From the IMG/VR virus record IMGVR_UViG_3300035180_000721, positions 1-41,484 of that record: 41,484 nucleotides of DNA. The stretch is one strand, 5' to 3'. A program made the translations under genes and the position numbers. Positions within the stretch are counted from its first letter, which is position 1. The number at the start of each line of letters is the position of its first letter. The notes under the pieces are model-generated. The model saw only the letters and a list, made by a program, of their open reading frames with translations, did no database searches and had not been told where the DNA came from. Below are positions 13,328 through 41,484 of this stretch, piece after piece. The stretch comes from a virus.

Positions 13328-13331
13328 ACTT

Positions 13332-15158
13332 ATGGGCTTAATTAATGCAAAAGACATAATTACATTAGATTATGCGTATTTAGGTAAACCTTTTTGTGAT
13401 ACCACTGTAGGAGCTGGGTTAAGCCTTAATACTTTAGATTATGCCCATTTAGCTAAACCATTTAATGGTAATTATTCTGGAATTTTTGACGCTTTAGGTT
13501 ATATTGTTTTTGGGGATGATATTACCTTTGCTCGATATATAAGTGATACTTTTTATGACTCTCCTGGTCTTAATGATACCACAATATTATCAAAGGTTAA
13601 TATAGATACTTTACCAGATACTTTTGACACACAAGACGATTGTGCAACTTTGGTAAAATTTTTGAATGAACTTACTCATGTTATTGATATTGATAAAATT
13701 TTAACTCCTTTATTTAAGTATTTTTTTACACTATCAGATATTTTGAGTATACAAGCAGATGTTGATGGTGTAATATTTTTTCCATTTTTATTGGATGGTG
13801 AATTATATTTTTTCGATTGGATTGTTCAAGGTGACCACGCTTTTACTGTATCACATGTATCTGATGATATTACTCCAATTATTATTTATAATCTTGGCAG
13901 TAATGTTACATGGATTGATGATTCACGTATTGCACAATTATTTAATCATGATTTAACTGATAATCCCAATTTTGTTCAAGATTTTATTTATACAATTCTT
14001 GAAACATTAGTTGATACAACTGATGTTGGAGATTTTGTAACAACCCTTCAACATATTCTGGATACTCTTGCAGATACATGTAATATCCAACAATCTATAC
14101 AAGATAAAATTTCTTGGGCTATTACATCAGTATTAAACTTTACTGATTCAAGTTTTACTGGAAAAATTATTTGGGGTTTAGCAGATAAATTACAACTAAC
14201 TGATACATTTAATACAATCTATCAGTTTTATGAAAACGTTTTCATTTTTTTGCAGAATAATTTAGATATAACAGGAAACAGATGGTTTGGGCATAATATT
14301 GATGATATTCTTCAAATTCAAAGCCAAATAGAACATTTTGGAAATGCAATTGAAGAATTAAAATCCGTTATAGATGTAGCTGATACATGGGTTAAATTAT
14401 TAGCTTTCCAATGTGCATTAAATGAACTTTGCAATCTATTAGAACAATTTTATTGGGTTCAACAGGTAAGTATTACTGATGAGTTCAATGCTAATGATAA
14501 TGTATTTCAACAGTTAAGTTTTAAGCTGGAACAAGCAGAACAATTTATTTTAGCTGGTGAAGTAACTCTTGCACAACAAGCTTTATTAGTTACTCTACAA
14601 GAGTTAATACAAATTGTACCAGAGCTCAAATTAGACCTTCAACAGATTTATAATTTACTTGAAACACTTATTGTTGATGATAGAGCTGATACCTTTATTG
14701 TGCCATATTTTGGTGCTGGGGTTTCAGTTAATGTTCCTGATACAACTACGACTGTTTTATTATATCATCCAACATTAGGTATGGGGTCGGCCAGTTATCC
14801 ATATGTATCTTACACATTTAACAATACACATAAAATGTTATTTTCAGCTGGGTTAGGTGGAGTATATCAACTAACCAAAGAAAAGACTAATGATACGGCT
14901 GGGTTAGTATTAGATATGGCATATTTATCTTCGCCAACAAAGAAATTTTTATATGATTTGTATGTTGATGGAGAAATTACTAAACCATATCAAGTCAAAA
15001 TTCAAACAGATATGCAGCAAACAACATATACTGGTCAATATAAAAGATTAAAAATTGGGAAAGGTTTAACTGGCACAAAATTAAAATTTATTTTACAAGA
15101 TATTGATGCTATCAATGAACTTGTATTTACTCCAATTGAAAGTAGGAGGAGTAAATGA
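13332..15158 (+). CDS. Large repetitive structural protein with LDYAYLxKPF motifs
   Basis: 608 residues. Residues about 11-45 carry two copies of 'TLDYAYLGKPF / TLDYAHLAKPF', and a looser third copy, 'LDMAYLSSPTKKF', lies near residue 530. This motif recurs in fibre-like virion proteins of other phages. The middle (about 90-450) is an irregular series of helical segments with recurring Asp-Thr-Leu/Phe turns (ADTW, TDTF, LADT). It ends in a beta-rich C-terminal domain. It starts 5 bases after the spike gene and overlaps the next gene by 4 bases (ATGA). Probably a fibre or tail appendage; no enzyme motif seen. Confidence 0.6.
   Translation: MGLINAKDIITLDYAYLGKPFCDTTVGAGLSLNTLDYAHLAKPFNGNYSGIFDALGYIVFGDDITFARYISDTFYDSPGLNDTTILSKVNIDTLPDTFDTQDDCATLVKFLNELTHVIDIDKILTPLFKYFFTLSDILSIQADVDGVIFFPFLLDGELYFFDWIVQGDHAFTVSHVSDDITPIIIYNLGSNVTWIDDSRIAQLFNHDLTDNPNFVQDFIYTILETLVDTTDVGDFVTTLQHILDTLADTCNIQQSIQDKISWAITSVLNFTDSSFTGKIIWGLADKLQLTDTFNTIYQFYENVFIFLQNNLDITGNRWFGHNIDDILQIQSQIEHFGNAIEELKSVIDVADTWVKLLAFQCALNELCNLLEQFYWVQQVSITDEFNANDNVFQQLSFKLEQAEQFILAGEVTLAQQALLVTLQELIQIVPELKLDLQQIYNLLETLIVDDRADTFIVPYFGAGVSVNVPDTTTTVLLYHPTLGMGSASYPYVSYTFNNTHKMLFSAGLGGVYQLTKEKTNDTAGLVLDMAYLSSPTKKFLYDLYVDGEITKPYQVKIQTDMQQTTYTGQYKRLKIGKGLTGTKLKFILQDIDAINELVFTPIESRRSK
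14231..14244. promoter_or_regulatory. Palindrome TGAAAACGTTTTCA (cre-like), copy 1, inside a gene
   Basis: Exact 14-base palindrome within the 13332-15158 gene, where it encodes part of YENVFIF. It is identical to the copies at 22524-22537 and 33926-33939. It matches the CcpA cre pattern TGWAANCGNTNWCA at every position. Confidence 0.55.
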
Positions 15159-16930
15159 TACCATTACCATCAGTTCCAGACTTATTAGACCCTCAATATA
15201 GTATTGAGGATTTTCAACCATCATTTACAGAGGTATCTGCACTTACTATTCTTGCGCCTCAAATTCAAATTCCAAACATTACACAAGAAACTTTACCAGA
15301 TATTGATATAACTCCACCTAATTTTTCTATGGATACAATATTATCTTCTGCTAAAGATAAAGTTGAAGAATTTGTAACACAATATATTTCAGCTTATTTA
15401 ACAGATTTTTATAATAATAGGGTCATAAATCAATTAAATGCGTCTAAATATAAGGTTTTTATTGATAGTTTATTAAGTGATATTTTAGTGCAACTATCAA
15501 ATTTAGGTATCTTACCAAATGTAACTATACCTACTATTGTTGACCCTGTGAGAGAGGCTATTACTAAATGTATTTTAGATATAAATACAGTTGTTGATAA
15601 GAACATTATTGATAAAATTACTACTACTGATAAACTTGCTGCATTAGGTTTTAAAAAACAAACGGGACCTATGACAGAGGTCTTGGATAGAATTGATTAT
15701 GATTCGTGGACGCAGCGAAATGCTATTGTTTTACAAACTAAAGCGCAGGTTATAAACCAAGTATTACAGTTAATATCAAACATGCTTGATAAGTTAATTT
15801 ACGCTCAATATGATTATTATTCATATTCATATAGAAATTTAAGAGATGTTTATTTAGATGCAATTAGACAAGTATTTTATTCATTTGGTTCTATAGCACA
15901 AGTTTGGAGTGAGAGTATATTTGACCCAATTTTTCAACGTATTATGTGGTATTCAGATGTTGCGATTAATTTAGATAATATAAGGGTTGAAACTCAAGCG
16001 AATATTGCTGCTACTACATATCAAGCTCAAGTTAAAAAATATCAAAGTCAACTTGAATTAGAAGTTGCATTTAATTCGGCATTAGTAAATTTGTATAATT
16101 TAAATTTAGCTAAAGCTAAAGCTTGGATTGAAGCTGAATTTAATGCTAATAAAATAAACATAGAAACATTAAAAAATAGCATAGCCAGAGTAGAAATGGA
16201 ACAACTTGAGCATAGTAAGCAAGCTACTTTAATAGACTTATTAACTACAAGACAAAAATTTGAAATTGAACGTAAACGGTTACTTGCATTAAGATATTTA
16301 CAATTACTTGCTGAAATCACTCATTACAAAAATACAATTGATATTTACCAAGCAAATGTTGAACGCATGTCTGCTGACATTGATAAATATAGTTTAGAGT
16401 ATAAAAAATTCAAAGCCAAAGCATCATTGGCAGAAACACAAATTAACAATGTTAAATTACAATATGATTTACAATCACAGCAATTAAATGTTAACGAGAA
16501 ATTATTATCTGCTCTTATTAAATTGGGTCAAAGTGATGTTCAATTATTTGATTCTGCTGATAGAATTTTCCAGAGACGAATACAAGCTTTTGAACAAGAA
16601 TTACAAATTAAAGAACGAAACGCTAAAGCGACATTAGAGGACGAATTGGCAAATAATAGAATAACTAATTTCCAACAATTATTTGATTATGATAGAGAAC
16701 AAAGAAACCAATTAAGTCATCGTTATAATAGTGACAGAACAGATTATGCTCTTGATAAAGCCCACATTGAAAATGATAAAATAATGAATACAACAACAAA
16801 TAAAACAAATGCTACTGCGGCAGCAATATTTGGTGTTGCGAGGTATCAACACATTGAAGAATTGATTAGAGCTTGTGCTATGGCACATGCAAAGGTAACC
16901 GCAACAATTTATGAAGCGGCTAAACCATAA
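15155..16930 (+). CDS. Large coiled-coil virion protein A
   Basis: 591 residues. Residues 1-60 are Pro/Ile-rich and extended (SVPDLLDPQYSIEDFQPSF ... ITPPNF). A globular helical part follows, then a very long charged coiled coil from about 270 to 520 (for example 'FEIERKRLLALRYLQLLAEI', 'YKKFKAKASLAETQINNVK'). The C-terminus (TAAAIFGVARYQHIEELIRAC) is Ala-rich. The architecture matches the next protein closely, so the two are probably paralogs. It could form a fibre shaft or tail rod, or be packaged in the head; it lacks the hydrophobic segments typical of tape-measure proteins. Starts by ATGA overlap. Confidence 0.6.
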   Translation: MIPLPSVPDLLDPQYSIEDFQPSFTEVSALTILAPQIQIPNITQETLPDIDITPPNFSMDTILSSAKDKVEEFVTQYISAYLTDFYNNRVINQLNASKYKVFIDSLLSDILVQLSNLGILPNVTIPTIVDPVREAITKCILDINTVVDKNIIDKITTTDKLAALGFKKQTGPMTEVLDRIDYDSWTQRNAIVLQTKAQVINQVLQLISNMLDKLIYAQYDYYSYSYRNLRDVYLDAIRQVFYSFGSIAQVWSESIFDPIFQRIMWYSDVAINLDNIRVETQANIAATTYQAQVKKYQSQLELEVAFNSALVNLYNLNLAKAKAWIEAEFNANKINIETLKNSIARVEMEQLEHSKQATLIDLLTTRQKFEIERKRLLALRYLQLLAEITHYKNTIDIYQANVERMSADIDKYSLEYKKFKAKASLAETQINNVKLQYDLQSQQLNVNEKLLSALIKLGQSDVQLFDSADRIFQRRIQAFEQELQIKERNAKATLEDELANNRITNFQQLFDYDREQRNQLSHRYNSDRTDYALDKAHIENDKIMNTTTNKTNATAAAIFGVARYQHIEELIRACAMAHAKVTATIYEAAKP

Positions 16931-16945
16931 TTAAGGAGATTTGAT

Positions 16946-19060
16946 ATGGGTGCTGATTGTAATTACGGAGATTTATGGATTACCTTATCTGACCCAGCCT
17001 ACCCTCAATCAGGTCAGGCTACACCACCTGTATCATTAACATTAGCAAATAGATTAGGGTTTTTATCACAGCAGCAACAACAACAAAATAGTGGTATAGT
17101 AGGTTTTTTCCCGAATATAGCATTTGGTAATGGTAATGCTCCATCAAATCAATCTACCGATGGTCTATTACCACCACCTGCATTAAATCAAATTCATGCA
17201 CCAATGATTGAAATGCAATGGTTACAAAGTGGTTGCACAACTCTTAAGTTAACCCCATATAACCCTGATTTTAGTTTTAGTGATATTGTTAATCAAGCAC
17301 AATCTCAAATATCAATACCAGAATTAGGTAACATACAGTCTATAAATACAGATGTTGGTAACTTTGGAGAATTACCTAATTTAGATGTAAACTGGGCTTA
17401 TCCAACTATTCAAATCCCTGCATTAAATTTAACAATACCAAACATACAGCCACAAGCACCATCCTTATTATCCAGTGCGACTATACCAACAAATACTTTA
17501 GATAATTTTACTTTACCCAAGCCAGGTCAATTAACACCCATTACTATAACATTATTAAATATTGCTGATTTATTATTACAGATACAACCGACTCAAATTA
17601 CAACAAGTATTGGTGATGTTGCTAAATCTAAAATTGCTGAAATTGTTAATGATATTTTTACATATATTAATGATTTTTTAACAAAATTAAACTTTACAAT
17701 ACAAGATTATAATTTTGAACTGTTAGCTAACGATGTTATTCAAAAATGTTTAAGTTTTATTCCAAACTGCCAAACCCCAATTCAAAATTTAACTTACTCA
17801 TTAGTCAATACATTTATTCCAACCACAAATCGTGTATTAAAACAACAAATGCAAAGTGATAAACTTTTTACAGCATTACAGAACTATTTAGATACATGGG
17901 TTGATGACCAACAGTTAATTGCACAATTTCAAAATAATATACAACGGTTGCGACAAGTTAACTTAAATAGAACTATAACATTAAACAATGTATCTGGGTT
18001 AGTCAGCCAGATATTACAACAGATTTTAGATACTAAATTACAACAAGATAATACTACTTTACAAAATATCCTACATTTATTTACCTTAAAAGGGCAAATG
18101 GAAGGTTTTGTGACAATGGCTAAAGAAGTGCCTTTACAAGTCCAAGAATGGCGGGCTCGTATTGAATCTAATATAGATATGGTGTTAGCTTATAGCCAGC
18201 GTAAATCACAAGAGTATCAAATTTTATATGATAGAATTAAATCTGATGTAACAGCATATGAGCTGCAAATTCAAAAATTGGTTAATACGAAATTAAGTGA
18301 ACACATGGCAGCAGACCTTCAAAATCAACTTCAAATGAGTTTAGCTAAATTAGCTGAATTAGATAATAAATTAGCAGCACAATATGTAAATCAAATCAAT
18401 GAATTAAATAGTGGGTTATTTAATTTAGCACAAACATATTTTAATTTATATGAAAAACTCATTACTTGGGAAACTTTATCAGCATATAGATTAAGAGCTG
18501 AAGCTATGTATGCTAAAGAATTAGCCCGATATGAAGCGGCACAAGTTAATAATCAAATTGCTGAAGCTGAAAAAGAAGAATTACAAATTAAATTGCAGCA
18601 GTTATCAATGATTTATCAGATTTTAATGCAAGAACAGACGATATTACATAAACGATATAATGCAGAATATATATTTTATAAAACACAATTAGATACAGCC
18701 CAAAAACTTTATGAAATAACACAACAACACATTTCACTTTTTCCAAGTATGGTTGAAGCAGCTAATAAAGAATTAAACGCTATAGCAGCAGAACACTTTG
18801 TTCGTGAAGCAACAAAAAGCATGACTATTTATATGAATTTGTATGAAAAATATCTAAACATTTTGACTGAAGAAACGACTTTAAGTATGGATGAAATTAT
18901 AGAACAAACTATCGCTGAAGCACATAAACGTGCTACAATAATTGAGAATAAGGTTGAAATTAGTAAAGTTTCAGCCGCTGAAGATGGTGCAATAACAACA
19001 GGTAACATTACTGATATTTTAGCAGACGCTGAAATTGAAAGTCATATTAGATATGGATAA
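16946..19060 (+). CDS. Large coiled-coil virion protein B (paralog of A)
   Basis: 704 residues, ribosome site AAGGAGA. After an N-terminal segment with a poly-Gln run (QQQQQQ, about residues 40-45), residues 100-200 are extended and Pro-rich, with repeated 'IPxLxxI' phrases like those of protein A. The 210-300 region (DVAKSKIAEIVNDIFTYIND) parallels 'SAKDKVEEFVTQYISAYLTD' in A. A long coiled coil runs from about 390 to 650, and the end is Ala/Thr-rich (AEDGAITTGNITDILADAE). Same order of parts as protein A, hence a probable duplication. Confidence 0.6.
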   Translation: MGADCNYGDLWITLSDPAYPQSGQATPPVSLTLANRLGFLSQQQQQQNSGIVGFFPNIAFGNGNAPSNQSTDGLLPPPALNQIHAPMIEMQWLQSGCTTLKLTPYNPDFSFSDIVNQAQSQISIPELGNIQSINTDVGNFGELPNLDVNWAYPTIQIPALNLTIPNIQPQAPSLLSSATIPTNTLDNFTLPKPGQLTPITITLLNIADLLLQIQPTQITTSIGDVAKSKIAEIVNDIFTYINDFLTKLNFTIQDYNFELLANDVIQKCLSFIPNCQTPIQNLTYSLVNTFIPTTNRVLKQQMQSDKLFTALQNYLDTWVDDQQLIAQFQNNIQRLRQVNLNRTITLNNVSGLVSQILQQILDTKLQQDNTTLQNILHLFTLKGQMEGFVTMAKEVPLQVQEWRARIESNIDMVLAYSQRKSQEYQILYDRIKSDVTAYELQIQKLVNTKLSEHMAADLQNQLQMSLAKLAELDNKLAAQYVNQINELNSGLFNLAQTYFNLYEKLITWETLSAYRLRAEAMYAKELARYEAAQVNNQIAEAEKEELQIKLQQLSMIYQILMQEQTILHKRYNAEYIFYKTQLDTAQKLYEITQQHISLFPSMVEAANKELNAIAAEHFVREATKSMTIYMNLYEKYLNILTEETTLSMDEIIEQTIAEAHKRATIIENKVEISKVSAAEDGAITTGNITDILADAEIESHIRYG

Positions 19061-20336
19061 ACATATTAAAGATTTAACTTCATTAGATTTTTTTCAATAT
19101 CGGGTTGAGCATGACAGCCCTGAATTTTGGAAAATCTTTTTTTATATAGAAGAACTTACTGAAGATATTTGTGTAAATATGTATGTATATGAAATATATA
19201 ATCTAACAAATGGTTTATTTGAGATTATAACAACAGATTACAGCGAAAGTTATTATACCCCTATTAAAGAACATGTTAACAAAGAGTTCTTATATGAATA
19301 TAATTCTATATTAGATTATGGATACATGCAGATGAATGCATATAGTCCACATCAGACTCTTCCTGGTTATTATGTTCCAACAGGTTTAGCTTTGGCATCA
19401 GCAAATGGATTTTTATATACATATAAAATTGATAAGCTACGAACAGATACCAAAGAGTTTCAATTTTCTATTTTTCATGGTGAATTAGGAAATCAAATTC
19501 CTATTGTAGGTTATAATGGGGATAGAAAATTTGCTCGTCTGCTTTATCATAATCAACTGGTTGATATTCAACATAAATGGGATAATATTTGGGAAAATAA
19601 AGCATTTTTTTCAGGTCTTGAAGGAGCAGACCCACCCTCACCTCCACCAAAAGCTTCAAATAGTAAACCATATCAAGCAGCATATGGTGGTTGGACTTTT
19701 AATGTAATAATTGGGATGGTATCAGGAGATTGTATATGTCCTGAATTACCAGTAACAGCACTACTTAACCGAGATGATGTCTCTCCATGTTTTGCATTCT
19801 ATGATACATATAGGCAGTATGATAATTTATATGTTAGTGCAATACAATATCAGATATTAAAAGTGTGTGGAGGGGGGCCTTTTGGTTCAACATTTTGTGC
19901 ACCATATGATTGTTACATTGAATTAACACATGATATAGATGATTATTATTCAATATATGCTAAAAATATACCGTTTTCTCATCCTACCTTAAGTAATTTA
20001 ATAAAACATCATGATGTTATATTTATGAGTGAAGGTTCTGAAACATCAAAAATATATTCTTCTTATTATTGCAACTATTGGTTTATAGTTGCAGCAGGTT
20101 TTAATTATACAACAACTATTAAACATACATTATTTGATTATACAATTACAGAGAGTGGTTTTTCAAACGGTTTACGTTGTTATCCAGAGGCATCAAATGT
20201 TTTATCACCTGAAGCACAAGATTTATATTATAAATATCAACAACTTTACCGTTATCAACAGTTACGATATACTTGTGTTCCAATAAGGTTTGAACAATCT
20301 GATTTACAAAATGGTCATATAGAATGGGTAATATAA
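19053..20336 (+). CDS. Uncharacterised aromatic-rich virion-region protein
   Basis: 427 residues from ATG 19053, which overlaps the previous gene's end by 8 bases; a TTG at 19035 is also in frame. The protein is unusually rich in Tyr, Phe and Asp, has a Pro run (PPSPPPK, near residue 195) and several Cys (ICPEL, KVCGGG, FCAPYDCY). No signal peptide, coiled coil or nucleotide-binding motif. It is encoded between the coiled-coil pair and the ejection proteins. I recognise no family. It may be a capping or adhesion protein of the preceding rod proteins. Confidence 0.6.
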   Translation: MDKHIKDLTSLDFFQYRVEHDSPEFWKIFFYIEELTEDICVNMYVYEIYNLTNGLFEIITTDYSESYYTPIKEHVNKEFLYEYNSILDYGYMQMNAYSPHQTLPGYYVPTGLALASANGFLYTYKIDKLRTDTKEFQFSIFHGELGNQIPIVGYNGDRKFARLLYHNQLVDIQHKWDNIWENKAFFSGLEGADPPSPPPKASNSKPYQAAYGGWTFNVIIGMVSGDCICPELPVTALLNRDDVSPCFAFYDTYRQYDNLYVSAIQYQILKVCGGGPFGSTFCAPYDCYIELTHDIDDYYSIYAKNIPFSHPTLSNLIKHHDVIFMSEGSETSKIYSSYYCNYWFIVAAGFNYTTTIKHTLFDYTITESGFSNGLRCYPEASNVLSPEAQDLYYKYQQLYRYQQLRYTCVPIRFEQSDLQNGHIEWVI

Positions 20337-21076
20337 AAAGAGATTGGTTTACATGGGCACACCCAATTTTAATTGGTGGACAAGACCCTAAATCTGCCAC
20401 ATCATTTGCGGCCATGCGAGTTTTACAACCATTAATGGGTAATAATAGAGAGGATAGACAAAGTTCTACCATTCCAATAGTGCCAGGATTAGGAGATATT
20501 CATCATGCTTCTTTACATCAAGAACAATTTGCCTGGTATATAAATAAAAGTGGTTGTAAAAAAGCGTTTGCATACACTTTAATAGCTCCCATACACTATA
20601 TGCCAGGTGATTTTGTGCAAGATAATAACGAAAATTTAACAGGGTTTGCATTATATGTTGGTATTGGAGCACAAGTTAACTTATGTGATATATGGACATT
20701 TATTAGACAGAAATATAAACTATCTAAAGTTGACTTAATTGATAATGATAAAATACAAGATAGTATAAAAAATTTATTACAAAATGGACAATTACAAGAT
20801 TATTATTTAATATATATGGTTTCATATGTAAAACCAGACCTGTTTGATTTGTATATTCCATCAGATTATCAGCTTCAAATAGATACAGCAATATGGCAAA
20901 ACTTTGTTTTACAAGCACATCAAAAATATCCATTAAAAAAATATATTGCAAAATATACAAACGATATATATACTAATTATTTGGATAATCCAGATTTTAA
21001 AATTGTGTTAGATAGTTTATCTCCAATATGTTTATCTCGTTTTAAGTTAAGAGTTTGGATGAGTAAAATAAAATAA
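20324..21076 (+). CDS. Uncharacterised structural-region protein
   Basis: 250 residues; overlaps the preceding gene by 13 bases, so expression is coupled. The N-terminal half has compact globular text (DWFTWAHPILIGGQD, then 'TIPIVPGLGDIHHASLHQEQFAWYIN', two adjacent His). The C-terminal half is helical and Tyr/Lys-rich, ending 'SRFKLRVWMSKIK'. No motif that I can assign to an enzyme. It is the last gene before a 69-base gap holding an imperfect inverted repeat, so it may end an operon. Confidence 0.6.
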   Translation: MGNIKRDWFTWAHPILIGGQDPKSATSFAAMRVLQPLMGNNREDRQSSTIPIVPGLGDIHHASLHQEQFAWYINKSGCKKAFAYTLIAPIHYMPGDFVQDNNENLTGFALYVGIGAQVNLCDIWTFIRQKYKLSKVDLIDNDKIQDSIKNLLQNGQLQDYYLIYMVSYVKPDLFDLYIPSDYQLQIDTAIWQNFVLQAHQKYPLKKYIAKYTNDIYTNYLDNPDFKIVLDSLSPICLSRFKLRVWMSKIK

Positions 21077-21083
21077 AATAAGT

Positions 21084-21124
21084 GGAGCTTCATAAAACAT
21101 AATTAAATATATTTATGTGGCTCC
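21084..21124 (+). other. Imperfect hairpin between structural and ejection genes
   Basis: GGAGC (21084-21088) pairs with GCTCC (21120-21124). After a 2+2 internal loop, CATAAA (21091-21096) pairs with TTTATG (21112-21117) around a 15-base AT-rich loop. No T-run follows, so it is not a standard terminator; it could be a processing site or an RNA stabiliser. GGAGG for the next gene lies 10 bases downstream. Confidence 0.45.
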
Positions 21125-21145
21125 GAGATAATGGAGGCAAAATAA

Positions 21146-21781
21146 ATGTATTGGTCAGATAGTGGTAAATTTGAACCAAACCCAACATTAATGGCATTAT
21201 TTCAACGGGCACATGAAGACAAAATGTCAGAATTAAGTGCCATTAGAGCGGCGCAAGAAGCGCAAGCACAAGCTGGTTTACTAAATGCACAAAGTGCTGC
21301 TGCTTTAAGACCAAGCCAGTCAGTTGAAAATCTGGCTCGTGCTGACGCCTACCGAGCCCAAGCACAATATGCTATACCAGCACAAGGTAGTGAGTCGTAT
21401 GCTCGTGCAAATGTATGGCAAGCACAAGCAAATGAAGCAAACGCTAAAAATAATGCAGCTTTACAGCCATATTATAAACAAATTAGTGATATTGCCGACC
21501 TGTGGAATAAGACACATGGCCAAAACCCTCCCAATGGAATTGGTCAACAAGTTACATTGGCAAATCCTCAACAGCCGACTGGGTCATTGTTCCCCTCATT
21601 TGATTTGTTCGATAACTATAAACTTCCATCTGCTGCAAATCTTCAGCAAAATCTATTTAATGAAGATAACACATCTACTGTTAATAATGATAAACAGGCA
21701 TTACCTTCAAATATAGGAATACCAGGAATTCAGAGAATAAACCAAAATAATGGTGTTCCTTTATATACTAATAATACCTAA
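21146..21781 (+). CDS. Probable internal virion (ejection) protein 1
   Basis: 211 residues. The first 110 are Ala/Gln-rich and helical with repeating 'AQA' and 'RANVWQAQANEANAKNN' phrases, typical of small internal virion proteins of short-tailed phages. The C-terminal half is disordered, Asn/Gln/Pro-rich, and includes KQALPSN. It is the first of three such genes. The frame stays open for 13 codons beyond the TAA (21782-21820, encoding QIALPEYDEATGG), containing the same Ala-Leu-Pro motif. This suggests a recently created stop or occasional readthrough. Confidence 0.65.
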   Translation: MYWSDSGKFEPNPTLMALFQRAHEDKMSELSAIRAAQEAQAQAGLLNAQSAAALRPSQSVENLARADAYRAQAQYAIPAQGSESYARANVWQAQANEANAKNNAALQPYYKQISDIADLWNKTHGQNPPNGIGQQVTLANPQQPTGSLFPSFDLFDNYKLPSAANLQQNLFNEDNTSTVNNDKQALPSNIGIPGIQRINQNNGVPLYTNNT

Positions 21782-21825
21782 CAAATAGCTTTACCAGAAT
21801 ATGATGAAGCTACAGGAGGTTAAAA

Positions 21826-22479
21826 ATGGCAGGCACAACTGACTTACTTAAATGGCTAATTCCTATTGGAATTGGAGGTTCTTTAGCACGTTCATATATG
21901 GGTGGTAATAATACTACTCAAGCACTACCACAATCTACTGCATTACTACCACAACAAAATAATAGTTTCTATGAAGCTCAACAGGAAATACATCCTTATA
22001 TAAAAAATCATCAAAATTTTATGGGTAAAGTTACTAATTATTTATCTAATTGGGTTAATCAAGAAAAACCTAATTTATATGAATTCAATGCAGTTATGAA
22101 CGCTATATCTCCGTTAATAGAACAATCAAAATATTTAGCTGATAGTGCTGTAAAAACAGCTCAATCACGGGCAGCTGAAAGAATACATATGTTCGATACT
22201 CTATATGGTGGGGATAATCAAACCCCAGGAGCGGCTAATGCCACAAATAGCGCTACGAGATTAAATCAAGCATACAACATTGTTTATGGAAATAAAGATA
22301 TGGATGCTAATGCACTTACTTTAGCGCAACGTTTAGGATTAACACAACAAAATAATCCATCATCAGGAACTAATAATACCCAGCAAGCATTACCAGGTGC
22401 CACAACACAATCAAATAATAATGATACAGATTATTTGAATAATGATTGGGACATTTACAAGGGTAATTTATTACCATAA
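21826..22479 (+). CDS. Probable internal virion (ejection) protein 2
   Basis: 217 residues, ribosome site AGGAGG. The N-terminus has a weakly hydrophobic helix (LLKWLIPIGIGGSLARSYMGG). The middle is helical (EFNAVMNAISPLIEQSKYLADSAVKTAQS), and both flanks are disordered and Asn/Gln-rich. 'QALP' occurs near residue 32 (TQALPQSTALLPQ) and again near residue 187 (QQALPGATT). The neighbour order small, small, giant resembles the internal virion gene order of P22- and T7-like phages. Function inferred from context and composition. Confidence 0.6.
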   Translation: MAGTTDLLKWLIPIGIGGSLARSYMGGNNTTQALPQSTALLPQQNNSFYEAQQEIHPYIKNHQNFMGKVTNYLSNWVNQEKPNLYEFNAVMNAISPLIEQSKYLADSAVKTAQSRAAERIHMFDTLYGGDNQTPGAANATNSATRLNQAYNIVYGNKDMDANALTLAQRLGLTQQNNPSSGTNNTQQALPGATTQSNNNDTDYLNNDWDIYKGNLLP

Positions 22480-22554: not shown

Positions 22555-25500
22555 ATGGACGATTTACAGCAACGTATTCAATTATTTGAAAATACATTAA
22601 GACAACAAGGTTATAATGATGACCAAATAAATTCATATAAACAACAGTTTGGAATACCACAAGTTCAACAGACTGCATTGCCTGTAGGCCAACAGTTACT
22701 ACAAGCACCTTTTCATGCTGCCGAGAGTATGGCTCCTCAAACATTAAATTTAGTTGGCCAAGCCCTTGATTATGTTCCTGATAGAATATTTGGGGCACAA
22801 CCTGATAGTATATTCAGAGTTCTACAACAAGGAATGCAACATGTAGCACAAGATTGGCAGCAACGGGTTAATCAAAATTATGGAGGAAACCCTGAACAAA
22901 TATACACAAATCCAATTGCTAAAATAGAGCATGGAGTTGTAAGTGCTTTACCAATTATGGCTGCTTCTGCTGCCGCTCCAGAAGTAACACTCCCAGCACT
23001 TTTTGCATCATCTGCTGAACAGGCACATCAAGAAATGCCTCCTAACCAATCGAATGGTCTATATCCTGAAGCATTTGGGTTAGTCAATACAGTAGCCCCT
23101 GGTATTCTTGGCAAAGTTACTCGTGGGGTATTAGCATCTAATGTTGTGCCTGATACATTAAAAGCAAAATTGCTGGAAGCTGGTAAGGCTGCATTAGCTG
23201 ATGCTGTTACGATGGGAGCGCAAGGCGCTTTGAATAAAACTCTTGAAGGGGCATCAGGTATTAATCCAAATGTTACTGCATCAGATATAGGCAAAGAAGG
23301 CCTTGAAAATGCTCTTGTTGGTGCTGTTCTTGGCGCAGGAACAGTAGGTGCTAAAACTCTAAAGGAAAGGTTGGCAAAGAATCAACAAAATGCAACGTCT
23401 GGAGCACAATTATCACCTGAAGACGCAGCTAAATTACATGCACAATTTAGTCTTTTACATAATGAGAATTACGATAACTTATCTCCTGAAAACCAACAAT
23501 TAGTTCAACAAGCCTATACTAATTGGACAGATAATCCAGATGAAATAGCTCAAAATTTTGCTAAATATAAAGATATTATACCATTAGTTATGGACTTAAA
23601 TAAAGTTTATAATAAAGATAATCAGCAAATACCTGATGTAATTAAAGAAGCAATGCCTTATACAATGCACTCAGGTGATTTACCAAAAATAGATTTAACA
23701 AAACCTGGCAATAATCAATCACAAGAACCAATAATGAATGGTAACTTTGAAGTTTACCATAAAGATAATTTTACACAATTACTTGATAGACCTAATAAGC
23801 TTGTCATGACTTTAGTCAAAGATAATGATGGTAAGGTTAAGACATATGTTTTACAGGATTTGACTGAAATAGACCCAAAGACAGGCACATATCCAATTTT
23901 ACATGAAACATCTGATGTGGCAGATATAAACAAGGTATATACAGATACCGTTAATGCTCGTCAACAGGAAGCAGTAAATCAAGCAGCACAGCCTGAACCT
24001 ACTGAAACATCACAGGAAGCGCAGCCTGTTCCAGAAGCCCCTCCTGTTCAAGAAGCACAGTCTGAACCTGAAACATCACAGGAAGCGCATCCTGAACAAG
24101 TATCTGATTATCCGAATATTCCAAAATCTTATCATATGCCAATTGAAAAGGTTAGAGCTGGTCAATTGGAAGATACAATACATGATGGGTCTATTCCAGA
24201 GGGGTTTATACCAGTTAAAGTATTAGATAGAAATGAAAGTGGCACAGAAGTTTTTTATGACCCTCAAACTCAAAAATATTTTCAAACAGAAGTTGAACCA
24301 GGACAACGTCGAGCTATTGTAGGTATTACAGATGAATCGCCAACCTTATCCTCCCAAGAATTTTCAGAACCTCTACACGATACAGATATTATAAATCAAA
24401 TTACTTCCACTATGTCTGGTGAAAAAATACCAGGATTACAACTTGTTGGACGAAATTTGAATCATGAGAGTAACAGTGGTATTTCTATTGATATATATAA
24501 AGACCCTAATAGTCCTGAACCAACATTTTTTGCAGTTCAAAATGTGCCAGGTAAGCCTTATGAAGTAATTGGGTATGGTAAAACTGCCGAAGAAGTTTTA
24601 AGGAATACACAACCTATATTAGATAGATTAGAAGAAAATGCTAAACTAAGTTCTATGGCAGCTCCCACTCAACCTGAAGCTACAACATCAACTGAACCTG
24701 AAACTACACAACCAACGGAAACTCCATCAATAAAGACGCAACCAACAAATTTTGAAACAATAGAAGATAGGATTAATGCAACACCATATAAAGAATCAAT
24801 TCCTGGAACACAATATGTTGCAAGAGCATATAGTGAAACAAATAAAGATTATTTTGTTGATATACGCAAAGATACAAAAACTAACCAATATTATGCTATT
24901 TTTAATCAACCAGGGAAGTCACAAGAAATAATTGGTCAAGATAAAAGTGCTACGGAATTACTAAAAAAATTTAAGTATTATGCTGATAGACGGCTTGACG
25001 CTAAAGAGTCATATCAAAAATTACAAAATCCAACAGAACAAAATCTTCAGAGTAATAGAGTTCAAAATCCAACAGCTTCAGAAAAAAAAAGTCCAATTGA
25101 AGAAACTAATGTAGTAAACCAAAAATTACCTGAAACGTCACCAGAAATAAATATACATAATGTGGAAAAACAATCAGTAGAAGAACCAAATAATGAAGCA
25201 AATTCAAATACTACAAATAGGAAAACTTTAAAAATAACACCAGAACAAAAACAGGCCATTGATAATATTACTACAGTAGATAAGGAATCCACACCTATAG
25301 ATGTTCAACAAAATCCAGAAGTAGGAAAAAATCCAGAGGTAGCATCAAGTGAATCTAAATTACAAGAAAAGCAAGGTACTGTTCCTGAACTTAAAAATAC
25401 AAACGAACAAATACCCAATACATTTGTAGAAAACCCACACTTAACTCCAGGGGAATTAATTACATATAATAAATTAAAAGCAAATATTGTAAATCACAAC

Positions 25501-28500
25501 TTATTTGAAACATTTAAAAATCAAACTACAGATAATGATATATCTACAATAGCTAAAGTTTTAGGGGAAACTGATAATCTTAAAGCTAAAGAAGATGCTG
25601 TCAAAGAGGCCAGATATGAATCACCACAAGATTACCCCGCTAAACGTGATGAGTTACAGACATATAAAGAACAATTGAAGCAAAGATTTTTTGATGCTGT
25701 CACAAAAAACCAAACTATTCAACCACAAATTAAACCAACCATATCAAAAAAAGAATTAACACATCCAACCGAACAAACTATTAGTCAGTTACAAGATGAT
25801 TTAGCAACAGGTAAAATGACAGTGCCACAAGTATTAGATATGGTGCAAAAAGTACCTGAAGATATTAAACCAGTTTTACAGGAACAAGCTAAACGAGATA
25901 TTCAAAATGGTAATGTTGTTTATTATCAAAATTCAATATCACAAAAATTAACTAATTGGTTGCGTCAAACATTAGGTGACCTAACTCCAGCTAAAATTGA
26001 ATTTGTTAATTTTGATAACATATCTGACAAATTAAAATCTCTTGGATTTACAGATAAAGATATTTTAGAAGCCATTGGCAGACATGACCAAACCATACCT
26101 GCTGATTTAGCCTTAAAAGCCTATTTACAAAAAGTTCGAGGTGTTAATATAATTCTATCAAATTCAAATGCTCCATTAATTTGGTTGCGTGCGGGTTTAA
26201 AAGACGCCGAAGCTAAACGCACAGCTTTGCATGAAGTTTTTGAAACATTAGTAAACAGTGGTTATTTTACACCAAAAGAAATTACAACTCTAAAAAAGGC
26301 TTTTAGTAATGGTAAAGAACATTGGATGGAACAAGCTGCTGATGCCTTTGCTGATAAAATAATGGAACCTAATCAAACAGGTATATTTAAGAAAATTGCA
26401 AACTTCTTTGAAAGAGTAAATAACGCTATAAACGGATTAGGTTTTAATAATGCTGATGATATTTTTGAGGCTATACAAAAAAATAAAGATAGGTCTATTT
26501 TTGCAGATTTTAGAAAAGCTCAAAACGAATTTGAAACTAAACAACTTAAAGCACTTGGTTTTTCTGTTGATAAAGATGATATAGTTCCTACACAATTTAG
26601 TATTATTAAACATGTTGTTGATTCTCTTAAAGGAGATAAACGTTTAAGCTCATTCGCCAGGATGTTTCTTAGTTCTCAATGGTTCAATCATCCTGTTATT
26701 AAATCATTGTTTAACATTTTTAAAACATCAGAGGAAAGAAGTAATTTACTCATAGCAGCATTCAAACAATTTTATAGGGATATTGAAAATGTTAAAAACC
26801 CAATGTTTGCAAAGGCCGTCTGGGATAGTGATGCTCAAGGTAAATTATTAGATAACAATACATTAAAAAATAAATATAAATTAACTAATGATGAAATTAA
26901 CATTTATCACCAAACCAAACAATTTTTTGATAAAATGGCTACCGAATATTTCACTGCATTAAAAAATTCTGTGATTTATGCTTTGAGTAATACGCCTGAA
27001 TATGCTAATTTATCTGATAATGCTCGGAAACATTTGGTTGAATGGATAGCTCAAAATAGTGATTCTTTAAGAGACAACCCTATTGTCATCCCAAAAGAAT
27101 TTAATATAAAAGAAGATGAGACTGTTAATCAATTTATTGGGCATGCGTTAAGCAAAATTAAACCTTTTGATGACCAAATTAATGCTTATACAGCAGCTGA
27201 TAAATTTTATACCCCTCGTTTACGGCAACGTGGCGAATGGGCTATTAAAGTTTACCAAGGGGTTAATGAACAATACCCTGATGGTACTACAAAATCATAC
27301 TGGGCTGAATTACATAGAGAGCATACTCCTACTACAATCACACAAACAGGTGGTCATTATCAAGCCGCTAAAATAATGAAGAGGTTACAAACCCAATATA
27401 ATGGGCGTATTGTTGATGAATTACCACGAAATGTTAAAGACAATGATATTGTTATTGTAAAAGCAAAAAATCCAAATAATGTATCTTCATTATATGAAGG
27501 AACTACTAATACAGCTGTGCAACAGTATCTTGAGTATATGACTGAAAGACTAAAGCAAGAACATCCTGTTGATGAAAAGGCTATTGATAACCTAATATCA
27601 ATGATTCAGAGTGATATACAAAATGATTTTATGAGTAGAGGTTTTGCAACATCTCGTTTCATTCAGCGCCAAGAAAATCTTGTAGAAGGATTTGAAAAAA
27701 ATCTTCCAAAGGTTATTTCTACTTATTTACCAGCAATGTCAAATAGCATTGCAAGACTCACGGCCACAAGTCAATTACAAGCATATCTAAATAGTCCTGA
27801 TGTTAGACATCAGTTACAAAATGATACACAACTTTTCAAATATTATAACGAATATACTGGAGCAATGTTAAAACCAGCCAGCGTACTTGATAAAGCAACT
27901 GCAACAATAAAGACATTTTTAACTGTGCGTATGTTAGGTATGAGTCTTAAAAGTGCTTTATCACAGTTAACACAACCATTTACAGTAGGTCTGCCTGAAA
28001 TTCTTGGTTTTATGAATGCTGAAGCGGATGCTTTGCGGCAATATAAACCAGAACGCACATCAGGTATGGATTTTGTTAATGCCAATATAAAAGCATTAAG
28101 TGGACTATCACAAAGTTCTTGGTCACTTCTTAAAAATTTAATGCGATTAGATACAATAAATCCAGAAGAACAAAACGCATTAGATAAAATTTTAGGCACC
28201 AGTGTAGCAGCAAATACTTTTGTTTCACAAATACGAAATGAAGCATCCATGATTTTGCCATCATATTTACATAGTCTATTTACTTCTTTAATGGCTCCTA
28301 TGCAATCTATGGAATTAGCAAGTCGTAAAATGGGTGCTTTAATGGCATATCGGTTGGCTAAACAAAAAGGGTTATCAAATGAGGACGCTATAAACTTTGG
28401 TACTAAATATAATGATAATGCATTTTTTATTTTTTCAAAAGTTAATAAACCACTAATAGCTCTAAAGAATCCTATAGTATCATCAATGTTAACGTTACGA

Positions 28501-29385
28501 GGATATGAAGTAAATTATTTAGGTTGGTTATATAAAACTATCAGGAATGAACAAAATAAAGTTTATTTTGATAAATTATTGGCAAATGGTTTATATACAA
28601 CTCTGTTTGGTGGTGCTTTAGCTGTGCCTTTTGTAACCCAAATATTAAAAGCATTTCAATGGATTACAGATGATGATAAAGATACTAAACAAGCGTTCTA
28701 TAAAACATTACAAAAACATGTTGGGCAAACAGGAGCAGATGTCTTGACCTATGGAGCACCATCATTATTAGGCTCTGATATATCAACATCGTTGTCTGTT
28801 GGCTTAATACCTGATGATTTATCTATACCCAGTTTAATGAATACATTATTTGGTGTATGGCGTGGAACATCATCGGATACAGAGGCTCTTTATAGAGCAG
28901 TACAACGAGGTGATTTCAAAAACATGTTCTTGGGAATAGCCCCACCATCACTTTCAAAAGCTGTATCCGCATATTCAAATTATGCTGAAAATAAACCTTT
29001 ACTCACAAAATATGGAAATGTTGTTACAGATGTTTATGGGCAACCAATTAAATACACAGGCTCTGAAGCTGTACTTGCAGGATTAGGGTTAAGACCAATT
29101 CGACCTGTAAAAGAAACAGAAGCAAAATTAGCCGCTGATACTACAAAGAAATTATATGATGAACAAAGAAATACAATTTATGATAAGTTACGTTGGGCTC
29201 CTGATGAGAATGCTATTCGCCAAATTATTACAAATGATGTTACAAGATACAACCAGAAGGCTGCCAAATATGGTGGTGTTATTCCTCTTATTACAATGAA
29301 TACAATCAAACAAACTCTGAAACGAGCATCTGGCAAACCATCCAAACTTGGCATCCTTCTGGCGAATGCTGACGAAACAGATTAA
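22555..29385 (+). CDS. Giant internal virion protein (ejection protein 3)
   Basis: 2276 residues. In order: an Ala-rich helical start that includes 'TALPVGQQLL'; a spacer of Pro/Glu/Thr repeats (about 480-520); a duplicated domain of about 75 residues (about 623-700, starting IPGLQLVGR, and about 748-820, starting IPGTQYVAR); a long disordered linker; a possible metallopeptidase remnant with 'ALHEVFETLV' (His1226-Glu1227) and 'EQAADAFADKI' some 35 residues on; then more than 1000 helical residues with a hydrophobic stretch near 2013-2032. Giant multi-domain proteins of this kind are carried in short-tailed phage heads and ejected into the host. No transglycosylase motif found in it. Its stop overlaps that of the opposing gene. 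Confidence 0.75.
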   Translation: MDDLQQRIQLFENTLRQQGYNDDQINSYKQQFGIPQVQQTALPVGQQLLQAPFHAAESMAPQTLNLVGQALDYVPDRIFGAQPDSIFRVLQQGMQHVAQDWQQRVNQNYGGNPEQIYTNPIAKIEHGVVSALPIMAASAAAPEVTLPALFASSAEQAHQEMPPNQSNGLYPEAFGLVNTVAPGILGKVTRGVLASNVVPDTLKAKLLEAGKAALADAVTMGAQGALNKTLEGASGINPNVTASDIGKEGLENALVGAVLGAGTVGAKTLKERLAKNQQNATSGAQLSPEDAAKLHAQFSLLHNENYDNLSPENQQLVQQAYTNWTDNPDEIAQNFAKYKDIIPLVMDLNKVYNKDNQQIPDVIKEAMPYTMHSGDLPKIDLTKPGNNQSQEPIMNGNFEVYHKDNFTQLLDRPNKLVMTLVKDNDGKVKTYVLQDLTEIDPKTGTYPILHETSDVADINKVYTDTVNARQQEAVNQAAQPEPTETSQEAQPVPEAPPVQEAQSEPETSQEAHPEQVSDYPNIPKSYHMPIEKVRAGQLEDTIHDGSIPEGFIPVKVLDRNESGTEVFYDPQTQKYFQTEVEPGQRRAIVGITDESPTLSSQEFSEPLHDTDIINQITSTMSGEKIPGLQLVGRNLNHESNSGISIDIYKDPNSPEPTFFAVQNVPGKPYEVIGYGKTAEEVLRNTQPILDRLEENAKLSSMAAPTQPEATTSTEPETTQPTETPSIKTQPTNFETIEDRINATPYKESIPGTQYVARAYSETNKDYFVDIRKDTKTNQYYAIFNQPGKSQEIIGQDKSATELLKKFKYYADRRLDAKESYQKLQNPTEQNLQSNRVQNPTASEKKSPIEETNVVNQKLPETSPEINIHNVEKQSVEEPNNEANSNTTNRKTLKITPEQKQAIDNITTVDKESTPIDVQQNPEVGKNPEVASSESKLQEKQGTVPELKNTNEQIPNTFVENPHLTPGELITYNKLKANIVNHNLFETFKNQTTDNDISTIAKVLGETDNLKAKEDAVKEARYESPQDYPAKRDELQTYKEQLKQRFFDAVTKNQTIQPQIKPTISKKELTHPTEQTISQLQDDLATGKMTVPQVLDMVQKVPEDIKPVLQEQAKRDIQNGNVVYYQNSISQKLTNWLRQTLGDLTPAKIEFVNFDNISDKLKSLGFTDKDILEAIGRHDQTIPADLALKAYLQKVRGVNIILSNSNAPLIWLRAGLKDAEAKRTALHEVFETLVNSGYFTPKEITTLKKAFSNGKEHWMEQAADAFADKIMEPNQTGIFKKIANFFERVNNAINGLGFNNADDIFEAIQKNKDRSIFADFRKAQNEFETKQLKALGFSVDKDDIVPTQFSIIKHVVDSLKGDKRLSSFARMFLSSQWFNHPVIKSLFNIFKTSEERSNLLIAAFKQFYRDIENVKNPMFAKAVWDSDAQGKLLDNNTLKNKYKLTNDEINIYHQTKQFFDKMATEYFTALKNSVIYALSNTPEYANLSDNARKHLVEWIAQNSDSLRDNPIVIPKEFNIKEDETVNQFIGHALSKIKPFDDQINAYTAADKFYTPRLRQRGEWAIKVYQGVNEQYPDGTTKSYWAELHREHTPTTITQTGGHYQAAKIMKRLQTQYNGRIVDELPRNVKDNDIVIVKAKNPNNVSSLYEGTTNTAVQQYLEYMTERLKQEHPVDEKAIDNLISMIQSDIQNDFMSRGFATSRFIQRQENLVEGFEKNLPKVISTYLPAMSNSIARLTATSQLQAYLNSPDVRHQLQNDTQLFKYYNEYTGAMLKPASVLDKATATIKTFLTVRMLGMSLKSALSQLTQPFTVGLPEILGFMNAEADALRQYKPERTSGMDFVNANIKALSGLSQSSWSLLKNLMRLDTINPEEQNALDKILGTSVAANTFVSQIRNEASMILPSYLHSLFTSLMAPMQSMELASRKMGALMAYRLAKQKGLSNEDAINFGTKYNDNAFFIFSKVNKPLIALKNPIVSSMLTLRGYEVNYLGWLYKTIRNEQNKVYFDKLLANGLYTTLFGGALAVPFVTQILKAFQWITDDDKDTKQAFYKTLQKHVGQTGADVLTYGAPSLLGSDISTSLSVGLIPDDLSIPSLMNTLFGVWRGTSSDTEALYRAVQRGDFKNMFLGIAPPSLSKAVSAYSNYAENKPLLTKYGNVVTDVYGQPIKYTGSEAVLAGLGLRPIRPVKETEAKLAADTTKKLYDEQRNTIYDKLRWAPDENAIRQIITNDVTRYNQKAAKYGGVIPLITMNTIKQTLKRASGKPSKLGILLANADETD

Positions 29386-35760: not shown

Positions 35761-36076
35761 TTGATTTTCCCCTTTCTGTATAAAATTTGAACATTTCAAT
35801 AAAATCTTTCAATTCAATTAAAACAATATCCTCGGAATGTTTATGGCGTGGTAAATGAATGATAATAATAGGTTTCCGAGGGTTAATACTTTCTTTTAAT
35901 TTCTGAAATTTTTGTATAAGAATATTATCCCATTTTAATTCAATTCGTTTAACAAAAAAATTTTTTAATAATATTCCATATTTATATATATCACCATTTA
36001 ATAATGATTTATATAAATTAAGATGATATTGTAATCTTTTATTAGACTCGATTTTTAGTATTTGTTTTATACTCAT
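35672..36076 (-). CDS. Unknown protein between Cas4-like nuclease and polymerase
   Basis: 134 residues from ATG 36076, which forms an ATGA overlap with the upstream gene; a longer in-frame opening to 36139 would run inside that gene. 'KIESNKRLQYHLNLYKSLLNG' is helical, 'NPRKPIIIIHLPRHKHSEDIVLIELKDFIEMFKFY' looks like a strand-turn-strand-helix unit. Its final strand pattern is similar to C-terminal parts of small phage nucleases, but no full catalytic set is visible. The last 30 residues are Ser/Thr/Asn-rich and overlap the polymerase reading frame. Probably a recombination accessory protein. Confidence 0.6.
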   Translation of the reverse strand: MSIKQILKIESNKRLQYHLNLYKSLLNGDIYKYGILLKNFFVKRIELKWDNILIQKFQKLKESINPRKPIIIIHLPRHKHSEDIVLIELKDFIEMFKFYTERGKSNGVSGDNSTTNSTTIQEQSFNYDGRGMDA

Positions 36077-36765
36077 ACAGCAAAACACAAATCCTTCACA
36101 GGACAATTTGTTAAACTTGCATGAACTTGTGTAGCACAAGCACGGTCAGGCATCGTATTACTACATAACCCTTTCGCAAATTGTTTGAATTGTTGTTCAA
36201 AGGTTTTATTTAATGACATTGGATATATTTTAATAGGTGGTTTCCAATGTCCTTTAGAAACGTAAACTAAAAATCCTTGTGTTACCTTTAATTTATTCTT
36301 TTTTGCTAATAATAAATATGTTAATAATTGATGTTCATGTTTATAAATAGGTTGTTTTAACTGCTTAAATTGTTCTAAACTCATAGATTTAATTTCTAAT
36401 ATATATAATTTTCCATTGTTTTCTATAATAATATCTGGATGTCCTTTAATAGTAAAAGCGCCTATTTTATATGACAGTAAAGGCACATTGATATGATATT
36501 GTAGTAGTGCTTCATTTATAATTTCTTCTATTTTCCAACCTAATTTGAATACTAATTTCAAACTATCATCTATGGATTTTTCTTGTTGATGAACCAGTAA
36601 TTTATTATTATAAATTAAATGACAGCCTCGTGGGCATATATTATAAAGTAAAGAAGCATTTAAGACTGAAAAATCGTTGCCTCTGGTAGAAGATATTTTG
36701 ATATTATCTACAATCAACCGATATAACTCATCAGCCGTAAGAATATTATTATCAGTATGGGTCAT
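36073..36765 (-). CDS. Cas4/RecB-like PD-(D/E)XK nuclease with probable Fe-S cluster
   Basis: 230 residues. Nuclease core: 'KGHPDIIIENNGKLYILEIKS' split as Gly108-His-Pro-Asp111 and Glu124-Ile-Lys126, followed by a Gln-containing helix 'HEHQLLTYLLLAK' (QxxxY). One Cys region near the start (Cys44 in 'NICPRGC') and Cys210, Cys221, Cys227 at the end are placed as in Cas4/AddB-type 4Fe-4S nucleases. Such enzymes trim DNA ends to single strands, which would feed the RecA-type recombinase. No CRISPR genes nearby, so a phage recombination role is likely. Short overlaps with both neighbours show coupling. Confidence 0.85.
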   Translation of the reverse strand: MTHTDNNILTADELYRLIVDNIKISSTRGNDFSVLNASLLYNICPRGCHLIYNNKLLVHQQEKSIDDSLKLVFKLGWKIEEIINEALLQYHINVPLLSYKIGAFTIKGHPDIIIENNGKLYILEIKSMSLEQFKQLKQPIYKHEHQLLTYLLLAKKNKLKVTQGFLVYVSKGHWKPPIKIYPMSLNKTFEQQFKQFAKGLCSNTMPDRACATQVHASLTNCPVKDLCFAV

Positions 36766-40921: not shown

Positions 40922-41484
40922 TTATAGTTTTGTAATTGATAAGATTGCTTGTTTTAACTTTTTATTCTCAATAAGTTCCGCAGGGTCTTTGCAACCACCA
41001 TATTCATTAACAACATATAATTCATTAAACAAATTACATGCGTCAATAATTTGACGCTGCATATTCTGCCCTGCATTATCATTATCAAAAAATAAAACAA
41101 ATGGTATATTTGATTGTCTTACTATCTGAATTTGTTTTTTAGTTAATGAGCCTAATGCACCCCAAGCAGTAAACCCTCGTCTGGACAACAAGATAACATC
41201 TCGTTCACCTTCACAAAGGATTATCTTCGAGGGATGCTTATCACCTGTCATATCCATACCATACCATAAGCCCTCCTGTTTTATATTAGCTGAACCTTCA
41301 TAATACATAAAACCTTTTTGTCTTAAATTACGACCCTTCAGAGCTTTTAATTCATGCCTATATGTTATAGGAAAAACTAATGTATTTTTATCTTTATCAT
41401 ACTTCAATTGCCATTTAGTTATATCATCTTTTGTTAAATTTAATACTTCATGTGCTTCTTCAAATGTGTTAAATAACTCTCGGA
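40922..41484 (-). CDS. DnaG-type primase, TOPRIM C-terminal part (5' end outside window)
   Basis: The frame is open from the right edge through 41407, so the TTG-like codon at 41407 is not the start. The TOPRIM domain is clear: 'KIILCEGERDVILL' (Glu for metal/phosphoryl chemistry) and 'FVLFFDNDNAGQNM' (Asp-x-Asp), with 'YGGCKDPAEL' closing the fold. It makes RNA primers for the lagging strand. It stops after the TOPRIM, so no fused DnaB-like helicase is present. The zinc-binding and N-terminal catalytic parts must lie outside. First visible gene of the minus-strand operon, 13 bases before SSB. Confidence 0.85.
   Translation of the reverse strand, partial: RELFNTFEEAHEVLNLTKDDITKWQLKYDKDKNTLVFPITYRHELKALKGRNLRQKGFMYYEGSANIKQEGLWYGMDMTGDKHPSKIILCEGERDVILLSRRGFTAWGALGSLTKKQIQIVRQSNIPFVLFFDNDNAGQNMQRQIIDACNLFNELYVVNEYGGCKDPAELIENKKLKQAILSITKL

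What the first reader, a model, noticed from the sequence alone, without database searches (positions are those of the whole stretch)
22555..29385. Giant ejection protein with a duplicated domain and a possible metallopeptidase site
Two copies of a ~75-residue domain (start IPGLQLVGR and IPGTQYVAR, sharing 'KPYEVIGYGKTAEE'/'KSQEIIGQDKSATE' ends) lie in the first third. Near residue 1226, 'ALHEVFETLV' plus downstream 'EQAADAFADKI' resembles the His-Glu...Glu layout of zinc peptidases found in large polyvalent phage proteins, although the strict HExxH is missing. The protein would be delivered into the host at infection.
Basis: partly seen in the sequence, partly recalled or inferred. Interest (0 to 1): 0.5.

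Follow-up and report, generated by a model that had tools for sequence, protein, structure and literature searches.

The report
Phage ejection protein, altered peptidase site
A giant phage protein, of a family thought to ride inside the virus particle and enter the host, carries a repeated small domain and a protein-cutting domain whose metal-binding site has been changed in an unusual, conserved way.

Summary
ORF 22555-29385 (+) encodes 2276 aa. Two copies of an ~83-aa block (res 615-697, 739-818) are homologous (35% over 92 aa, E 6e-14; 0 of 2000 shuffles) and predicted as a four-strand, one-helix unit. HEVFE lies at res 1226-1230, EQAADAFA at 1259-1266.

The C-terminus (res 1697-2256) is a PLxRFG domain: NCBIfam NF032893, 125.6 bits, cut-off 100. 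The HE region aligns with zincin-like domains of polyvalent-type phage giants. Of 24 ORFs reached by the profile, 14 carry HExxH and 10 HExxE; the 10 are copies of three near-identical contigs plus one 31%-identical relative, L015. These keep the first His, the base Glu and the distal Glu and lose only the second His; trees group them.

Whether the domain still cuts is open: I favour a derived zincin that is no longer a standard zinc protease, with an active HExxE variant as live rival. Delivery into the host is inferred from family context, not shown. A modest new variant of a known kind.

The parts
22555..29385 (+). Giant ORF, 2276 aa, last gene of the + strand late block
22555..23484 (+). 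N-terminal region, res 1-310, Ala/Gly-rich; function unknown
   Evidence: No Pfam match up to E 10; phrog_342 internal virion protein only at E 0.023; no 19-residue stretch with mean hydropathy over 1.5 in the whole protein
24397..24645 (+). Repeat copy 1, res 615-697, predicted beta-beta-beta-beta-alpha
24769..25008 (+). Repeat copy 2, res 739-818
25042..25944 (+). Polar linker, res 830-1130, rich in Glu, Lys, Gln, Asn, Thr
26020..26544 (+). Zincin-derived domain, res 1156-1330
26230..26244 (+). HEVFE, res 1226-1230: first ligand His and base Glu kept, second ligand His replaced by Glu
26320..26352 (+). HWMEQAADAFA, res 1256-1266: distal ligand Glu1259; His1256-Trp shared with L015 only
27208..27234 (+). 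YTPRLRQRG, res 1552-1560: degenerate PLxRFG motif
27643..29322 (+). PLxRFG domain, NF032893, res 1697-2256

Best explanation
This is a giant PLxRFG-family phage protein, probably packaged in the virion and released into the host with the DNA (inferred). It has an N-terminal region, a lineage-specific tandem repeat of a small four-strand one-helix domain, a polar linker, a zincin-derived domain and a large C-terminal PLxRFG domain. The zincin-derived domain descends from HExxH metallopeptidase-like domains of related phage giants; in this lineage its second metal-ligand histidine became glutamate. The domain most likely survives as a folded module that is no longer a standard zinc protease: it may join the N-terminal part to the C-terminal part, or hold a much altered metal site. 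Descent and layout are shown by sequence; packaging, delivery and loss of standard activity are inferred.
For: PLxRFG: 125.6 bits against a cut-off of 100; a C-terminal profile of window plus L015 reaches 68 of 70 giant proteins at E<=1e-3, though 62 of these were fetched by that likeness. Zincin kinship: iterated profile, 14 HExxH ORFs; His1226, Glu1227 and Glu1259 invariant in 12 of 12 rows. Loss of the second His in window and L015 alike, sisters in two trees. The site stretch 1219-1273 is 47% identical to L015 against 33% overall, so it is under constraint. Fold second look: 24 of the first 25 rows are chains of zinc metallopeptidases. Family context: DarB-like gp69 found in JC1 virions by mass spectrometry (PMC9144972, passages); P1 DarB is a head protein believed to translocate (PMC9024508, passages). 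Substituted zincins are described as probably inactive (PMC3650047, passages).
Against: His1226, Glu1227 and Glu1259 are all kept, which a dead enzyme need not do. The model is poor and all fold matches are under Z 5. The profile was seeded with the window itself. No Pfam peptidase or polyvalent family matches the window. Virion presence was not tested for this phage, and I could not fetch JC1 to test that its C-terminus is of this family.
Confidence: 0.6

Rival explanations
1. The HExxE domain is an active variant metallopeptidase. Glu1230, or the lineage-specific His1256, takes over the third metal ligand, possibly with a metal other than zinc, and the domain cuts the giant protein before or after delivery, as proposed for HExxH polyvalent proteins.
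For: First His, base Glu and distal Glu kept in window and L015; HWxE shared by these two only; high local identity. Two papers name HEXXE as the motif of working metalloprotease families, CLCA (PMC6851300, one passage) and fungal M35 (PMC7215534, passages).
Against: Another paper gives the CLCA1 motif as HEXXH (PMC3861482, passages), so that precedent is unsure. A His-Glu-Glu set is not the usual zinc site (general knowledge). Only two distinct sequences carry it.
Confidence: 0.28
2. The protein is mainly a structural tail or ejection-channel protein that stays with the particle or envelope, and nothing in it acts as an effector in the host.
For: NCBIfam calls the domain tail-700; Epa33's member is deposited as a structural protein; no catalytic Pfam domain found.
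Against: Relatives carry methyltransferase-like and LPD39 segments and a sub-threshold ART-PolyVal match, which suggests cargo; P1 DarB is believed to translocate (PMC9024508).
Confidence: 0.25
3. The HE and EQAADAFA motifs are a chance resemblance and the segment is not zincin-derived.
For: No significant fold or Pfam match; weak model.
Against: Homology spans ~175 residues and reaches HExxH domains by iterated profile; zinc peptidases lead the second-look list.
Confidence: 0.06

Closest known systems
PLxRFG domain-containing phage proteins (NCBIfam NF032893 tail-700; phrog_11358)
   Same: C-terminal domain passes the curated cut-off; giant late gene next to structural genes
   Different: PLxRFG motif degenerate (PRLRQRG); zincin site HExxE; tandem beta4-alpha repeat not seen in relatives
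DarB-like antirestriction giants (phrog_10089; phage P1 DarB, Bcep22-like phages)
   Same: C-terminal kinship through L005 and POI1126; very large late gene
   Different: No methyltransferase or helicase domain found in the window protein
Zincin-like MPTase of polyvalent proteins (Iyer et al. 2017, PMC5512222)
   Same: HE helix followed by a helix with the distal Glu, embedded in a giant phage protein
   Different: HExxE instead of HExxH; that paper's text mentions HEXXXH but the term HEXXE does not occur in it
Phage N4 virion RNA polymerase C-terminal half (PMC12633501, passages)
   Same: Zincin-motif domain followed by a large C-terminal domain (mostly helical in N4) in an ejected giant protein
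   Different: No sequence match of the C-terminal profile to any PDB chain at a useful E-value; no polymerase domain found here

Membership tests
PLxRFG domain-containing protein (NF032893) | Score above NCBI's curated cut-off of 100 bits | tested here: met
   125.6 bits, res 1697-2256, profile 106-660 of 681
PLxRFG domain-containing protein (NF032893) | Literal PLxRFG motif | tested here: not met
   PRLRQRG at the aligned place
Zincin-like metallopeptidase | HExxH | tested here: not met
   HEVFE; HEVME in L015
Zincin-like metallopeptidase | Distal Glu in a second helix | tested here: met
   Glu1259 invariant in 12 of 12 rows and in a predicted helix
Zincin-like metallopeptidase | Zincin core fold | tested here: inconclusive
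   Model mean pLDDT 54.9; best Z 4.9 to 8sln_A, rmsd 3.5, 91 aligned
Zincin-like metallopeptidase | Metal-dependent proteolysis | not testable with these tools
   Needs an assay
Pfam MPTase-PolyVal (PF18818) | Score above the gathering cut-off | tested here: not met
   No match to the window; relative L032 only 14.1 bits against 27.5
Polyvalent protein (Iyer et al. 2017) | Several domains of unlike activity in one polypeptide | tested here: inconclusive
   Repeat, zincin-derived and PLxRFG domains found, but no clear second enzyme
DarB-like antirestriction protein | Methyltransferase and helicase domains | tested here: not met
   No such Pfam or PHROG match
Virion ejection protein | Present in virions and released into the host | not testable with these tools
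   Only family and position evidence

The most novel reading that the evidence does not exclude
A metallopeptidase clade within phage ejection proteins has switched from HExxH to a conserved HExxE site, with a new conserved His (HWxE) beside the distal Glu. It works with a rearranged ligand set, perhaps with a metal other than zinc, to process a giant virion protein.
Probability: 0.2. Interest if true: 0.55.

Novelty: new variant of a known kind. Interest (0 to 1): 0.33.

Why it matters
Zincin-like domains are called the commonest domain of polyvalent phage proteins (PMC5512222, passages), and their cutting role is mostly predicted. A clade that keeps every key residue but one over deep divergence is a natural test of whether metal binding or only the fold is needed. 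The repeated beta4-alpha unit is a small candidate domain for structure work. Otherwise the find is a new member of a family already known for its giant late proteins.

Tried and rejected
Chance motif: rejected, because the homology spans ~175 residues. Close relative in named phages: tblastn of the whole protein gave 2 of 50,697 records at E<=1e-5, both through the C-terminus. The peptidase segment alone gave only three records at E 4. The repeat copies gave nothing better than E 6.

A third repeat copy at res 565-591 was considered and dropped (domain i-Evalue 4). Repeat fold: Foldseek against PDB and BFVD gave 0 matches at E<=0.001; the second look was topped by 6d7k_D (Z 6.6, rmsd 2.5, 63 aligned), then WGR domains near Z 5, under the level to trust, so DNA binding is not claimed. 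Bacterial (prophage) relatives: the first genome-contig scan found none; the second gave 8 loci for the C-terminal alignment, none with the zincin profile at E<=1e-3. More HExxE members: two further viral scans returned only the window's phage and L015. N4 vRNAP kinship by sequence: not found. PDB profile search with the zincin alignment: best was an FtsH zinc protease at E 0.23, not significant. DUF4404 (E 0.008, 17.2 bits against 27) was treated as noise. Promoter and terminator scans were at shuffle level. The N-terminal 320 residues found no relative beyond the window's phage (best other E 0.037). The codon comparison with L004 failed because of an indel and is not used. One search was an out-of-frame translation and is not used.

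Full report
Setting. The window is a virus record. Its + strand carries a portal-like fragment at its very start, a major head protein and further head genes, then a run of large late genes without PHROG function, ending with the ORF in question. The - strand carries ribonucleotide reductase, methyltransferase, thymidylate synthase, RuvC-like resolvase, DNA polymerase, recombinase, helicase and primase matches. Both ends seem to cut into genes: the first ORF matches only positions 243-543 of 560 of phrog_332 and the last - strand ORF matches 171-334 of 947 of phrog_47. The record is probably a fragment or a permuted genome (inference).

Observation. ORF 22555-29385 is 2276 aa. The two named blocks, at res 625 and 749, are true repeats: 35% identity over 92 aa, E 6e-14, 0 of 2000 shuffles. 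With copy 2 as its only alignment partner, copy 1 is predicted as four strands and a helix, mean pLDDT 77.4, pTM 0.69. The copies are joined by a Thr/Pro/Glu-rich linker. A profile of both found no match at E<=1 outside the window's phage among 2888 ORFs of 83 loci plus the window, and named phages gave nothing better than E 6. No fold match reached a trustworthy level. The repeat is real, lineage-specific so far, and of unknown activity.

The C-terminus. Res 1697-2256 match NCBIfam NF032893, 'PLxRFG domain-containing protein', at 125.6 bits against a cut-off of 100, and phrog_11358 at E 1.5e-10. The same model scores 882 and 786 bits in the giants of Vibrio phage 1F273_PE002 and Pseudomonas phage Epa33. 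Named relatives reached with L015 (18 records) are mostly annotated DarB-like antirestriction, PLxRFG or DNA methylase proteins. The signature motif is degenerate here (PRLRQRG). In Microcystis phage Mel-JY34 the homologue is likewise the last + strand gene before a block of - strand genes.

The peptidase-like segment. A scan with the C-terminal alignment brought 62 loci. Of their 62 ORFs, 42 contain at least one HExxH somewhere and 20 do not; several are cut by locus ends. The nearest relative, L015, is 31% identical over 1248 alignment columns and reads HEVME...HWKEEAADAFA where the window reads HEVFE...HWMEQAADAFA. L016 and L017 read HEAWH...IEKQADIFA at the same place. A profile seeded with window, L015 and L016 and iterated reaches 24 of 2888 ORFs: 14 with HExxH and 10 with HExxE, the latter being nine copies of three near-identical contigs (the window's among them) and L015. 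Some of the 14 are also near copies of each other. In a 12-row alignment His1226, Glu1227 and Glu1259 are invariant, and Glu1230 stands in the column of the second ligand His. His1256-Trp is shared with L015 only. Window and L015 are sisters in a C-terminal tree (100/100, 15 rows) and in a domain tree (99/98, 12 rows), so one change from HExxH to HExxE is the simplest history, although long branches make deeper forks unsure. The stretch 1219-1273 is 47% identical between the two against 33% overall; 56 of 1090 windows of that size are higher.

Structure. The model of res 1070-1345 is weak (mean pLDDT 54.9; best ten-residue block 83, just after the HE helix) and shows two short strands, a helix with HEVFE and a later helix with Glu1259. 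Foldseek had no match at E<=0.001; its first two rows were PPEP-1 and its sixth PprI, at E 0.37 to 3.0. In the second look 24 of the first 25 rows are chains of zinc metallopeptidases, many of them repeated entries of a few proteins, with Z 3.9-4.9; by the ranges, 17 cover a catalytic region and 7 fall on the N-terminal domain of one of them, which I recall as a non-catalytic zincin-like domain. This agrees with the sequence evidence but does not prove the fold.

Function. Iyer et al. (PMC5512222, passages read) describe zincin-like domains as the commonest domain in polyvalent proteins, suggest autoprocessing, and mention HEXXXH; the term HEXXE does not occur in that text. Substituted zincins are known in general and described as probably inactive; the second His there is most often changed to Lys, Arg or Leu beyond expectation (PMC3650047, passages). 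The term HEXXE gave 1 paper with metallopeptidase and 5 with motif in the library; no title among them concerns a phage, and I opened two. I conclude that the domain is a zincin by descent with an altered site, and I put loss of standard zinc-protease activity ahead of a still-active variant by about two to one. Packaging and delivery rest on family evidence: JC1 gp69, a DarB-like protein, in virions (PMC9144972, passages) and P1 DarB, a head protein believed to translocate (PMC9024508, passages). I could not fetch Bcep22 to test its C-terminus directly and did not hold JC1.

Noticed in passing
25354-25545 (res 934-997): 11 of the 12 amino-acid differences from the near-identical contig in L002 lie in this stretch of the linker, a local hot spot or a small recombination tract.
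   Followed up: no
1-1031 and 40922-41407: Both end ORFs match only parts of their PHROG families (portal/head-tail adaptor, primase), so the record looks cut or permuted; the near-identical contig of L002 is 63183 bases long.
   Followed up: partly
11147-22479: A run of eight + strand ORFs of 211-726 aa just before the giant gene has no PHROG match better than E 0.01; they may be further tail or ejection proteins.
   Followed up: no
36073-36765: A - strand ORF matches phrog_1706 (CRISPR/Cas system associated) and Cas4-domain exonuclease families.
   Followed up: no
L084:2832-14193: In Pseudomonas phage F116 the giant is split into two genes (methyltransferase part and PLxRFG part), while its relative Epa33 (L086) has one fused gene.
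   Followed up: no
L016:3-5813: This relative has a sub-threshold ART-PolyVal match just after its zincin-like domain (25.3 bits, cut-off 31.2).
   Followed up: no
L018: A relative close by its C-terminus (tree) has no HExxH and no significant zincin profile hit, so the domain may have been lost there.
   Followed up: no
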